A DNA stretch of 64,000 nt from Salvelinus alpinus. Lineage: Eukaryota; Chordata; Actinopteri; Salmoniformes; Salmonidae. Shown in pieces: positions 21,227 to 31,052 of this stretch. The notes under the pieces were generated by a model. It saw only the letters and a list, made by a program, of their open reading frames with translations, was not told where the DNA came from and ran no database searches. Numbering within the stretch: the stretch's first letter is position 1; the number at the start of each line of letters is the position of its first letter. A program made the position numbers and the translations under genes. The stretch spans positions 11,330,076 to 11,394,075 of the forward strand of contig NC_092099.1 in assembly GCF_045679555.1 (NCBI RefSeq), written 5' to 3'.

Positions 21227-21553
21227 TGTCACGATCGTCTTGCGGTGAGAGAGATGAACAAACGAAACAAAACAACAAACAGACGAACGTGAAGCTATGA
21301 AAGAACTAAGTGCACACATGCAACATAGAACATAGACAATTACCCACAAAACCCATCAGAGACAATAAACCACAGCTGCCTCTAATTGAGAACCAATCTA
21401 GGCAGCCATAGACATACAAACACCTAGACAAGACACTGACCCATTAAACGTACAAACCCCTAGACAAACCAAAACACATACATTCCCCATGTCACACCCT
21501 GACCTAACTAAAATAATAATGAAAACAAAGATAACTAAGGCCAGGGTGTGACA
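21227..21553 (-). repeat. 3' LTR of the 21-24 kb element
   Basis: The + strand begins TGTCACGATCGTCTTG and ends CCAGGGTGTGACA, the same as the right copy, but with two internal deletions. It is preceded on the minus strand by the G-tract. Confidence 0.85.
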
Positions 21554-21629
21554 GTACCCCCCCCCCCCAAAGGTGCGGACTCCGACCGCACAACCTGACA
21601 TTGAAGGGGAGGGTCCGGGGTGGGCCTTA

Positions 21630-23921
21630 TTACGGCGGCGGCTCGGGTGCGGGACGTGGCCCCCACTCCACCATTGTCAATACCCGCTTTGGTGGCTCTG
21701 GTAGATCCTGGCTGACTGGCGGCTTTGGAAGATCCTGGCTGGCTGGCGACTCTGGCTGCTCATGGCTGGCTGGCGACTCTGGCTGCTCATGGCTGGCGGA
21801 CGGCTCTGGCTGCTCATGGCTGGCGGACGGCTCTGGCTGCTCATGGCTGGCGGACGGCTCTGGCTGCTCATGGCTGGCGGACGGCTCTGGCTGCTCATGG
21901 CTGGCGGACGGCTCTGGCTGCTCATGGCTGGCGGACGGCTCTGGCTGATCCTGTCTGGCGGACGGCTCTGGCTGATCCTGTCTGGCGGACGGCTCTGGCT
22001 GATCCTGTCTGGCGGACGGCTCTGGCTGATCCTGTCTGGCGGACGGCTCTGGCTGATCCTGTCTGGCGGACGGCTCTGGCTGATCCTGTCTGGCGGACGG
22101 CTCTAGCGGCTCGGGACAGACGGGCAGCTCTGACGGCTCGGGACAGACGGGCAGCTCAGACGGTGCTTGGCAGACGGGCAGCTCAGACGGTGCTTGGCAG
22201 ACGGGCAGCTCAGACGGTGCTTGGCAGACGGGCAGCTCAGACGGTGCTTGGCAGACGGGCAGCTCAGACGGTGCTTGGCAGACGGGCAGCTCAGACGGTG
22301 CTTGGCAGACGGGCAGCTCAGACGGTGCTTGGCAGACGGGCAGCTCAGACGGTGCTTGGCAGACGGGCAGCTCTGACGGTGCTTGGCAGACGGGCAGCTC
22401 TGACGGTGCTTGGCAGACGGGCAGCTCTGACGGTGCTTGGCAGACGGGCAGCTCTGACGGTGCTTGGCAGACGGGCAGCTCTGATGGTGCTTGGCAGACG
22501 GGCAGCTCTGACGGTGCTTGGCAGACGGGCAGCTCTGACGGTGCTTGGCAGACTGGCAGCTCTGACGGTGCTTGGCAGACTGGCAGCTCTGACAGTGCTT
22601 GGCAGACTGGCAGCTCTGACGGTGCTTGGCAGACTGGCAGCTCTGACGGTGCTTGGCAGACTGGCAGCTCTGACGGTGCTTGGCAGACTGGCAGCTCTGG
22701 CCGGCTGAGGCACACTGTATGCCTGGTGCGTGGTGCCGGAACTGGAGGTACCGGGCTAAGGACACGCACCTTCAGGCTAGTGCGGGGAGAAGGAACAGGG
22801 CATACTGGACCCTGGAGACGCACATTAGGCCTAGTGCGTGGTGCCGGCACTGGTGGTACCGGGCTGGGGACACGCATCTCAGGGCTAGTGCGGGGAGCAG
22901 CAACAGGACGCACAGGACTCTGGGGACACACAGGAGGCTTGGTGCGTGGTGTAGGCACTGGTGGTAATGGGCTGGAGACACGCACCATAGGGCTAGTGCG
23001 TGGAGGAGGAACAGGGCTCTGGAGACGCATAGGAAGCTTGGTGCGTGGTGCCGGAACTGGTGGTACCGGGCTGGAGACAAGCACCACAGGGTTAGTGCGT
23101 GGAGGAGGAACAGGGCTCTGGAGACGCACAGGAAGCCTGGTGCGTGGTGTAGGCACTGGTGGTACTGGGCTGGGGCGGGGAGGTGGCGCCGGAAATACCG
23201 GACCGTGCAGGCGTACTGGCTCCCTTGAGCACTGAGCCTGCCCAACCTTACCTGGTTGTATGCTCCCCGTCGCGCGACCAGTGCGGGGAGGTGGAATAAC
23301 CCGCACCGGGCTCTGTAGGCGAACCGGGGACACCATGCGTAAGGCTGGTGCCATGTATGCCGGCCCGAGGAGACGCACTGGAGACCAGACGCGTTGAGCC
23401 GGCTTCATGGCACCTGGCTCAATGCCCAATCTAGCCCTGCCAGTGCGGGGAGGTGGAATAACCCGCACCGGGCTATGAACACGTACAGGAGACACCATGC
23501 GCTCTACTGCGTAACACGGTGTCTGCCCGTACTCTCGCTCTCCACGGTAAGTACAGGGAGTAGGCGCAGGTCTCCTACCTGACTTCGCCACACTCCCTTT
23601 TAGCCACCCCCCAATACATTTTTGGGGCTGACTCACAGGCTTCCTACCGCGTCTTCGTGCTGCCTCCATTCGCCGGTATCCCTCCTCGCACTGCGCCAGA
23701 GAATCCCAGGCGGGCTCCGGCACTCGCCCTGGGTCGATCGCCCACCTGTCGATCTCCTCCCACGTAGTGTAGCCCAGATCCTGCTCCCATTGCCATAAAT
23801 CCTGTGTGTATTGCTCCTGTTGCCGCTTGACGCGCTGCTTGGTCCCGTTATGGTGGGTAATTCTGTCACGATCGTCTTGCTGTGAGAGAGAGGACCAAGG
23901 CGCAGCGTGTGAAAAATACAT
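21630..23921 (-). CDS. Proline-rich protein with 9-residue tandem repeats, from LTR element
   Basis: 763 codons without a stop. Residues 1-100 hold a charged region (QWEQDLGYTTWEEIDRWAID, then VPEPAWDSLAQCEEGYRRME) not recognised from any family. Residues about 150-430 are Pro/Arg-rich with repeated SPVR, VIPPPRTG and PVPAPRT motifs. A tandem array in three blocks of 9-residue units follows: about 20 of SELPVCQAP type, 6 of EPSARQDQP and about 8 of EPSASHEQP. The end is LTMVEWGPRPAPEPPP. That end is shared with the element at 29.3 kb in the same sense relative to the LTR, which argues the frame is the coding one. The repeat array resembles disordered, extracellular or structural proteins, but no function is assigned. 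Whether it is translated is unknown. Confidence 0.55.
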   Translation of the reverse strand: MYFSHAAPWSSLSQQDDRDRITHHNGTKQRVKRQQEQYTQDLWQWEQDLGYTTWEEIDRWAIDPGRVPEPAWDSLAQCEEGYRRMEAARRRGRKPVSQPQKCIGGWLKGSVAKSGRRPAPTPCTYRGEREYGQTPCYAVERMVSPVRVHSPVRVIPPPRTGRARLGIEPGAMKPAQRVWSPVRLLGPAYMAPALRMVSPVRLQSPVRVIPPPRTGRATGSIQPGKVGQAQCSREPVRLHGPVFPAPPPRPSPVPPVPTPRTRLPVRLQSPVPPPRTNPVVLVSSPVPPVPAPRTKLPMRLQSPVPPPRTSPMVRVSSPLPPVPTPRTKPPVCPQSPVRPVAAPRTSPEMRVPSPVPPVPAPRTRPNVRLQGPVCPVPSPRTSLKVRVLSPVPPVPAPRTRHTVCLSRPELPVCQAPSELPVCQAPSELPVCQAPSELPVCQALSELPVCQAPSELPVCQAPSELPVCQAPSELPVCQAPSELPVCQAPSELPVCQAPSELPVCQAPSELPVCQAPSELPVCQAPSELPVCQAPSELPVCQAPSELPVCQAPSELPVCQAPSELPVCQAPSELPVCQAPSELPVCQAPSELPVCPEPSELPVCPEPLEPSARQDQPEPSARQDQPEPSARQDQPEPSARQDQPEPSARQDQPEPSARQDQPEPSASHEQPEPSASHEQPEPSASHEQPEPSASHEQPEPSASHEQPEPSASHEQPESPASHEQPESPASQDLPKPPVSQDLPEPPKRVLTMVEWGPRPAPEPPP
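21702..22716. repeat. 27-bp minisatellite within the LTR element
   Basis: About 35-37 units of 27 bp fall in three homogeneous blocks. 21760-21940 is CTGGCGGACGGCTCTGGCTG with CTCAT, 21945-22104 has GATCCTGT in its place, and 22146-22700 is the GGTGCTTGGCAGACGGGCAG type. Within the last block a C-to-T variant (GACGGG to GACTGG) spreads through the last seven units, a sign of recent unit-by-unit homogenisation. Confidence 0.9.
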
Positions 23922-30620: not shown

Positions 30621-30670
30621 GTTCAGGTTTTGCGGCCGGAGTCCGCACCTTGGGGGGGGGGGGGGGGTAC

Positions 30671-31052
30671 TGTCACGTTCCTGACCTTATTTCCTTTGTT
30701 TAGTATTTGTTTAGTTGGTCAGGACGTGAACTGGGTGGGCATTCTATATGTTGTGTTTCTATGTTGGGTATGTTGTTTGGCCTAATATGGTTCTCAATCA
30801 GAGGCAGGTGTTTGTCATTGTCTCTAATTGGGAACCATATTAAGGTAGCCTGTGTTCACTGTTTGTTTGTGGGTGATTGTTCCTGTTCGTGCGTTCATGT
30901 GTTTTATGTTCTCTCGTTCAAGACTGTAGCTTCGTTGGTTTTCGTTTGTTTTATTGTTTTGTTCGTATTGAAAGTAAGTGTTCCAATAAATATGGAAACG
31001 TACCACGCTGCGCTTTGGTCCTCCTCTCCTTCCAACGACGAAAGCCGTTACA
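30671..31052 (+). repeat. 3' LTR of the truncated LTR element
   Basis: 382 bp, starting TGTCACGTTCCTGACC directly after the G-tract and ending CGTTACA. It shares GGTTCTCAATCAGAGGCAG-like words with the LTRs at 21-24 kb, so the two LTRs are related but well diverged. Confidence 0.78.

What the first reader, a model, noticed from the sequence alone, without database searches (positions are those of the whole stretch)
21227..31052. Two LTR elements with fixed ends but wholly different 9-residue repeat arrays
The elements at 21227-24266 (minus) and 29310-31052 (plus) share four things: a C-terminal motif (LTMV[E/G]WGPRPAPEPPP), a 17-bp hairpin differing at one base, a G-tract, and the junction TACTGTCAC into the 3' LTR. 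Between the Pro/Arg-rich part and that end, one carries about 35 units (SELPVCQAP, EPSARQDQP, EPSASHEQP) and the other quite different units (EPPARQEPP, SQDLPEPS, ELPLSP), mostly on the same 27-bp period. Neither shows gag, RT or integrase. This looks like a non-autonomous retroelement family with a long, rapidly turning-over proline-rich ORF kept in frame. It may be undescribed as a protein family; that part is inference.
Basis: partly seen in the sequence, partly recalled or inferred. Interest (0 to 1): 0.8.

Follow-up and report, generated by a model that had tools for sequence, protein, structure and literature searches.

The report
Salmonid jumping elements with conserved gene
These are two copies of a very abundant salmonid retroelement in which no enzyme gene was found but which keeps one proline-rich protein gene, starting inside the terminal repeat and showing signs of being maintained by selection.

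Summary
Both elements are real and belong to one large family of non-autonomous LTR retroelements in a salmonid genome. Element 1 (21227-24266, minus) has both LTRs and a perfect 5-bp target duplication. Element 2 (29314-31052, plus) is 5'-truncated. Their arrays are not wholly different: mostly the same repeat blocks in the same order, with copy-number turnover and an extra block in element 2. The family appears to prime itself: a 10-nt LTR site is complementary to the primer site after the 5' LTR, and both covary between subfamilies (45 of 53 copies perfect). The ORF begins in the LTR and runs through the primer site; 99 of 100 listed U5 lengths keep its frame, against 34:27:39 for the non-coding G-run. 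The middle of the protein shows purifying selection (pN/pS 0.455 in frame, 1.2 in other frames); the arrays and the young N-terminal piece do not. The protein matched nothing in Pfam, and 26 of 30 homologues carry a species name, all salmonid. No gag-pol partner sharing these ends was found, in partial lists. Best reading: a Tf1/sushi-like, trans-mobilised element with its own disordered protein, perhaps Gag-like. The protein's function is inferred.

The parts
21222..21226 (.). target-site duplication GTAGT, left
   Evidence: read; identical at 24267-24271
21227..21553 (-). element 1, 3' LTR (327 bp; lacks a stretch present in the 5' LTR)
   Evidence: read; self-BLAST
21557..21568 (-). element 1, G-tract next to the 3' LTR (likely polypurine tract)
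   Evidence: family-wide junction
21574..21590 (-). element 1, 17-bp imperfect inverted repeat TGCGGTCGGAGTCCGCA
   Evidence: the C-variant of the motif in 1,931 places
21630..23921 (-). element 1 ORF, 763 aa plus stop, from ATG in the 5' LTR
   Evidence: frame evidence
21633..21680 (-). element 1 conserved C-terminus LTMVEWGPRPAPEPPP
21694..22699 (-). element 1 array of 27-bp / 9-aa units (two TRF arrays, 0% indels), net acidic
22721..23577 (-). element 1 basic SPVR / PxPRT region and conserved middle (SVAKSGRRPAPT...MVSPVR)
23578..23633 (-). element 1 hypervariable A/T/G tract (with its anchors) inside the ORF
   Evidence: (place C14:11353653-11353708)
23853..23862 (-). element 1 primer binding site AATTACCCAC, coding ITH of RITH
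23864..24266 (-). element 1, 5' LTR (403 bp)
24018..24027 (-). element 1 self-primer site GTGGGTAATT in the 5' LTR (predicted RNA 5' end)
24267..24271 (.). target-site duplication GTAGT, right
29314..31052 (+). element 2, 5'-truncated copy
29314..30620 (+). element 2 part of the ORF (open from the flank; no N-terminal part), stop included
29544..30487 (+). element 2 arrays of 27-bp then 18-bp units
30540..30587 (+). element 2 conserved C-terminus LTMVGWGPRPAPEPPP
30631..30647 (+). element 2, 17-bp imperfect inverted repeat
30652..30667 (+). element 2 G-tract
30671..31052 (+). element 2, 3' LTR (382 bp); self-primer site GTGGGTGATT at 30869-30878, in-LTR ATG at 30992

Best explanation
A large family of non-autonomous LTR retroelements with recent copies. 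Shown by sequence: LTRs, 5-bp target duplications, a primer site complementary to a site in the element's own LTR, a G-run next to the 3' LTR, no detected enzyme gene, and one long ORF that starts in the LTR, passes through the primer site and ends just before the 17-bp repeat and the G-run. The protein has an N-terminal part with exchangeable W-E-E modules, a conserved basic SPVR/PxPRT middle, an acidic Pro/Glu array whose length turns over like a minisatellite, and a fixed C-terminus. Inferred mechanism: the RNA folds back so that its 5' end primes reverse transcription, as in Tf1/sushi elements. A Tf1/sushi-type helper in the same genome supplies Gag, reverse transcriptase and integrase. 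The element's own protein acts as a Gag-like or nucleocapsid-like accessory: the basic half binds the element RNA and the disordered acidic half acts as a spacer or docking arm towards the helper.
For: LTR/PBS covariation: of 53 copies with the LTR held, 45 match 10/10, 5 have 1 mismatch, 1 has 2, 2 have 3; GTGGGTAATT with AATTACCCAC 25, GTGGGTGATT with AATCACCCA[CT] 21, swapped 1. 11 of 13 solo LTRs, judged solo from their flanks, have perfect 5-bp duplications. U5 lengths 99 of 100 listed (of 198 places) in one frame class, control G-run 34:27:39 of 100 listed. Middle piece in 46 copies: coding frame has stops in 2 of 46, other frames in 46 and 45; pN/pS 0.455 against 1.22 and 1.21; 16 deep pairs w 0.21-0.41. 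147 of the 150 scored genomic matches have no stop in a 133-aa stretch, median open frame 587.5 aa. Charge per 100 aa: -1, +13, +14, +14, then -10, -12, -16, -7. Tf1/sushi-type SH3_Tf2-1 domains with ORFs up to 1542 aa occur in the genome, and one such element (L094) has the same GGGGTAC|TGTCACG junction. Named homologues in four salmonid genera including Coregonus (family checked).
Against: No helper sharing these LTRs was found; the presumed LTR of L094 is otherwise different and no such junction was found in L093. No Gag domain in Pfam, no PDB relative for the one N-terminal piece tried, and the predicted structure is low confidence (pLDDT 48.5), so the Gag-like role rests on charge and position only. 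Within the young element-1 subfamily the N-terminal piece shows no purifying signal (shared N:S 29:9, singletons 31:18). Array units show no consistent codon constraint. The internal tract breaks the frame in half of the listed copies (50:26:24). In 10 of 31 copies the frame is not kept across the array. RITH is not kept in all homologues: P0005, P0008 and P0010 have RNTH, P0012 RRSH. The LTR end motifs also fit rGmr1, not only Sushi (PMC3601003).
Confidence: 0.5

Rival explanations
1. The ORF is the remnant of the Gag region of an autonomous element; selection acted on the helper's Gag, and the non-autonomous copies are repeated internal-deletion products.
For: Position directly after the LTR, basic then acidic protein, purifying selection clearest between deep lineages and weak or absent between most close copies.
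Against: No gag or pol seen by eye in the translated stretches of 56 5' copies, all picked by patterns or similarity from this family and 34 of them read for only 230-260 aa. 29 PBS-to-G-run distances on contigs C1-C6 are 1181-2255 bp, none above 3 kb (capped lists). None of 34 SH3_Tf2-1 places there has this PBS or junction in range. The diverged subfamilies sampled have the same internal plan.
Confidence: 0.25
2. Translation itself, not the protein, is what matters: a long ORF protects the RNA from decay or loads ribosomes, so any stop-free proline-rich sequence would do.
For: Arrays show no consistent codon constraint; TRF arrays of 27 and 18 bp with 0% indels; low-confidence, mostly unstructured prediction.
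Against: pN/pS of the middle piece 0.455 in frame against 1.2 out of frame; 46 invariant columns in an 11-sequence alignment reaching Coregonus.
Confidence: 0.15
3. The internal part is a captured host gene carried as cargo.
For: None direct; salmonid gene models fuse it to pyrin, OGFr_N and MLC1-like sequence (Pfam names of the first two recalled from their accessions).
Against: The 13 homologues whose sequences I read look like element ORFs or fusions with them; the 26 named hits of the profile search are salmonid, with no non-salmonid relative among them.
Confidence: 0.07
4. The ORF is a by-product of stop-free GC-rich minisatellite sequence, not a gene.
For: Arrays are open in several frames and on both strands.
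Against: Other frames of the non-repeat middle have stops in 46 and 45 of 46 copies; U5 frame class 99 of 100 listed.
Confidence: 0.03

Closest known systems
[quoted passage not shown]
   Same: Self-priming from a site in the LTR, TGT...ACA LTR ends, G-rich tract at the 3' LTR; one element of this group in the same genome (L094) has the same GGGGTAC|TGTCACG junction (PMC6317226 passages).
   Different: No reverse transcriptase, integrase or chromodomain found; LTR body without clear similarity to the two sushi-type 3' ends read here; ORF starts inside the LTR.
TR-GAG elements (plants; definition recalled, only search listings seen)
   Same: Non-autonomous LTR elements that keep one structural-type ORF and must use a helper.
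   Different: No detectable Gag domain; protein is proline-rich with 9-aa and 6-aa arrays; vertebrate host; self-priming.
TRIM / LARD non-autonomous LTR elements (recalled)
   Same: Short internal region, trans-mobilisation inferred.
   Different: They lack a conserved ORF; here the ORF is under selection.
Ty1 of yeast (recalled)
   Same: Gag ORF begins inside the 5' LTR, so the primer site lies in coding sequence.
   Different: Ty1 is autonomous, copia-type and primed by a tRNA.

Membership tests
Tf1/sushi group | self-priming primer site complementary to the element's own LTR/RNA 5' end | tested here: met
   45 of 53 copies 10/10, covariation of two alleles; the RNA 5' end itself was not mapped
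Tf1/sushi group | pol with RT, integrase and chromo/SH3_Tf2-1 domain of that clade | tested here: not met
   no Pfam match in either window ORF; it may work like a sushi element in priming but cannot be filed as an autonomous member
Tf1/sushi group | LTR ends TGTYANR...CNTNACA | tested here: met
   TGTCACA...CGTGACA and TGTCACG...CGTTACA against Table 3 of PMC3601003 (passage); not discriminating, the rGmr1 motif fits too
Non-autonomous LTR retroelement | paired LTRs, target duplication, PBS, 3' purine tract, no pol | tested here: met
TR-GAG | ORF with a recognisable Gag domain | tested here: not met
   0 Pfam families at E<=1 for 7 sequences scanned; a very diverged Gag cannot be excluded
TRIM / LARD | no coding capacity | tested here: not met
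Trans-mobilisation by a sushi helper | helper proteins act on this RNA | not testable with these tools
   no helper with the same LTRs found

The most novel reading that the evidence does not exclude
A vertebrate non-autonomous LTR lineage that has evolved and kept its own protein, so far seen only in salmonids and without any known relative, with the primer site written into its codons (the three alleles found, AATT, AATC and AATA, all read as isoleucine). The protein would be a parasite's tool for hijacking sushi-type particles, and its array turnover would be the fast-evolving contact surface with the helper.
Probability: 0.3. Interest if true: 0.75.

Novelty: new variant of a known kind. 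Interest (0 to 1): 0.58.

Why it matters
Non-autonomous LTR elements are usually thought of as non-coding passengers or as bare Gag carriers (recalled). A family with hundreds of exact-motif places and thousands of candidates, open frames of 500-900 aa and codon-level selection asks what protein a trans-mobilised element needs for itself. It also suggests that some salmonid 'proline-rich' and fusion gene models are retroelement sequence, which matters for annotation. The covarying self-primer/PBS pair, embedded in coding sequence, is a natural test of self-priming in vertebrates. Repbase could not be consulted, so the repeat itself may already have a library name.

Tried and rejected
Autonomous partner: a PBS-only pattern led to L089 and L090, both again proline-rich. 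Integrase-core hits led to L091 and L092, whose 3' ORFs look envelope-like by eye and are not relevant. Tf2-1 SH3 hits gave L093 and L094, only the latter sharing the junction. Intersection of PBS, junction and SH3 places on contigs C1-C6 found no long element (repeated with all listed C1-C6 junctions, because one search had only 86 of the 100 listed; the tool's lists are themselves capped).

Selection inside the young element-1 subfamily and inside arrays: no consistent purifying signal. The C-terminal pN/pS of 0.42 is biased because copies were picked by an amino-acid motif; I lean on the middle piece, picked by nucleotide BLAST (46 of 78 loci then held passed the 200-nt length cut; L043 and L058 show the same element).

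Structure of the N-terminal 240 aa: no confident fold. PDB (one piece), Pfam and Rfam gathering-level: nothing. Papers: of the papers listed none describes this family, judged by title and start of abstract. I read passages of PMC3601003, PMC7599744 and PMC6317226 and section 12 of PMC3601003; nothing else beyond listings.

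Full report
What is there. Element 1 lies on the minus strand at 21227-24266. Its 5' LTR is 23864-24266 and its 3' LTR 21227-21553 (an internal stretch is missing from the latter), and the 5-bp duplication GTAGT stands on both sides. Element 2 at 29314-31052 on the plus strand has only the 3' LTR (30671-31052) and lacks the N-terminal part of the ORF. In the minimum-energy folds the 17-bp repeat forms the 4-bp (element 1) or 5-bp (element 2) tip of a longer stem whose lower part pairs the G-run with an upstream C-rich stretch.

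The family. The window lies in a 2.37-Gb genome that could be searched. A search with element 2 gave 10,506 first-look candidates, of which 40 were scored; the 5' non-repeat piece of element 1 gave 2,960, of which 40 were scored, all at 91-100% identity; the 133-aa middle of the element-1 protein gave 15,087, of which 150 were scored. The PBS plus downstream motif occurs exactly at 435 places, the U5-to-PBS pattern at 198, and the 17-bp repeat plus G-run plus LTR start at 1,931; the reversed control patterns gave 0 each. First-look candidates are not confirmed copies.

Arrays. Coding the units by type (my own coding) in the copies with a long open segment ending in the C-terminal motif (24 rows, 21 distinct copies) shows a general order: A (LPVC), B (PPVC), C (ARQ), D (ASQE and like), E (SQDLP), F (LPLSP), then the C-terminus. 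Blocks can be missing or interleaved. Element 1 is A22 C6 D7 E2 T; element 2 is A3 B4 D1 C5 D5 E4 D3 F12 T. So the arrays share blocks and general order with different counts, rather than being wholly different. The TRF arrays have 0% indels at period 27 or 18. Within arrays, changes are not consistently biased to synonymous positions.

Self-priming. Ten nucleotides just after the 5' LTR are complementary to a site in the LTR about 150-255 nt upstream. Of 66 PBS rows, 53 had the LTR held; 45 match 10/10, 5 have one mismatch, 1 two and 2 three. The two common alleles go together: 25 copies GTGGGTAATT with AATTACCCAC, 21 copies GTGGGTGATT with AATCACCCA[CT], one swapped (L049). A few 5' copies were missed by the search expression, which also fixes most PBS letters. 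No TGG start typical of tRNA-primed sites is seen (recalled criterion). Self-priming is described for the Tf1/sushi group of yeast and vertebrates (PMC6317226, passages). Of 13 LTRs of the element-2 type that I judge solo from their flanks, 11 have a perfect 5-bp duplication.

The ORF starts in the LTR. An ATG lies just after the AATAAA, and the frame runs through the LTR end and the PBS. In 62 of 66 rows this frame has an upstream ATG before any stop, against 2 and 17 of 66 for the other frames; of the four misses two (L089, L090) did not have the LTR held. Independently, of 100 listed U5 patterns the lengths 50 to 73 fall 99 times in one frame class. Controls: the non-coding G-run before the 3' LTR, 34:27:39 of 100 listed, and the self-primer-to-ATG distance, 24:13:10 of 47 (p=0.03). 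The PBS codons read RITH in these copies; alleles AATT, AATC and AATA (the last once, L005) all code isoleucine. Homologues P0005, P0008 and P0010 have RNTH and P0012 RRSH, so the motif is not absolute. Two upstream ATGs lie between the predicted RNA 5' end and this ATG in each of the two LTRs.

Selection. A 270-bp piece of the middle, found by nucleotide BLAST, was compared in 46 copies. The coding frame has a stop in 2 of 46, the other two in 46 and 45. Pooled pN/pS is 0.455 in frame and 1.22 and 1.21 out of frame. The 16 pairs joining the diverged L002 or L075 with eight other representatives have w 0.21-0.41. Close pairs are often higher (L058-L040 0.72, L002-L075 1.06, L076-L078 1.15), as expected for copies decaying after insertion, but L009-L017 is 0.35. 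The C-terminus gives 0.42 against 1.56 and 0.93, but there the copies were picked by an amino-acid motif. Against this, the young element-1 N-terminal piece shows none (29 of 30 copies used). Across the array, 21 of 31 copies keep the frame (one third expected, p=9e-5) and 14 of 31 are also stop-free; the 31 include one duplicate pair, L043/L058. An A/T/G tract inside the ORF is hypervariable; 50 of 100 listed copies keep the element-1 frame class. Of 150 scored genomic matches 147 have no stop in the match; the open frame has a median of 587.5 aa, 94 are at least 500 and 35 at least 700 aa; these are the best-scoring matches, so intact copies are favoured.

The protein. From the in-LTR ATG element 1 codes 763 aa. 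Net charge per 100 aa is -1, +13, +14, +14, -10, -12, -16, -7. N-terminal W-E-E modules appear to be exchanged between subfamilies, by eye. No Pfam family at E<=1 for the 7 sequences scanned and no PDB sequence for the one piece tested. AlphaFold2 with 11 sequences gives mean pLDDT 48.5 with only low-confidence N-terminal helices, which fits disorder but does not prove it. Protein searches gave 13 and 30 hits (in the second only the 7,996 candidates sharing most words were scored). In the larger set 26 of 30 carry an organism name, all Salvelinus, Oncorhynchus, Coregonus or Hucho, all genera of Salmonidae; 4 are unnamed. Coregonus P0012 is 39% identical over 98% of the query piece. Forty-six columns are invariant in the alignment A1.

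Partner. No gag or pol was seen by eye in the translated stretches of 56 5' copies, all picked by similarity to this family; 34 of them were printed for 230-260 aa only, and L060 runs into unrelated sequence. On contigs C1-C6, 29 of 147 PBS sites have a listed junction downstream, at 1181-2255 bp; none of 34 sushi-type SH3_Tf2-1 places has this PBS or junction in range (the tool's lists are capped). One sushi-type element, L094, has the junction GGGGTAC|TGTCACG with a different presumed LTR; none was found in L093. A sushi-type helper is therefore plausible, not shown.

Conclusion. The element looks like a self-priming LTR retroelement that depends on a helper. It carries a protein gene that selection has kept over the divergence of its subfamilies. 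What the protein does is inferred: a Gag-like accessory is my first choice, a Gag remnant of an unseen autonomous element the main rival. Salmonid identity of the window rests on the homologues; the species was not determined.

Noticed in passing
19611-25195, minus: Element 1 splits LINE-like reverse transcriptase and endonuclease ORF fragments (for example 20772-21134 and 24626-25195); family assigned by eye.
   Followed up: no
29190-29313 and 31053-31350; 32478-33446: Element 2 seems to sit in a Tc1/mariner-like fossil; Tc1-like transposase ORFs lie downstream (assignment by eye and recalled).
   Followed up: no
41539-43939: A 2.4-kb satellite of about 133 copies of an 18-bp unit, 91% matches.
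   Followed up: no
11771-11932: A perfect (TG)81 microsatellite.
   Followed up: no
L086, about 440-665: One family copy with a 499-aa open segment has an acidic, probably helical segment in place of the usual YGQTPCYA...SPVR middle; no Pfam or PDB match.
   Followed up: partly
23578-23633 and the places: The A/T/G tract inside the ORF is hypervariable and resembles the G-run next to the 3' LTR; it could be a second purine tract or a slippage site.
   Followed up: partly
P0008, P0011, P0013, P0032: Salmonid gene models fuse this ORF to pyrin, OGFr_N, MLC1-like and LINE-like reverse transcriptase sequence: exonisation or annotation artefact.
   Followed up: no
L037: L037 joins the C-terminal motif directly to an in-LTR ATG, so the 17-bp repeat and G-run are missing there.
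   Followed up: no
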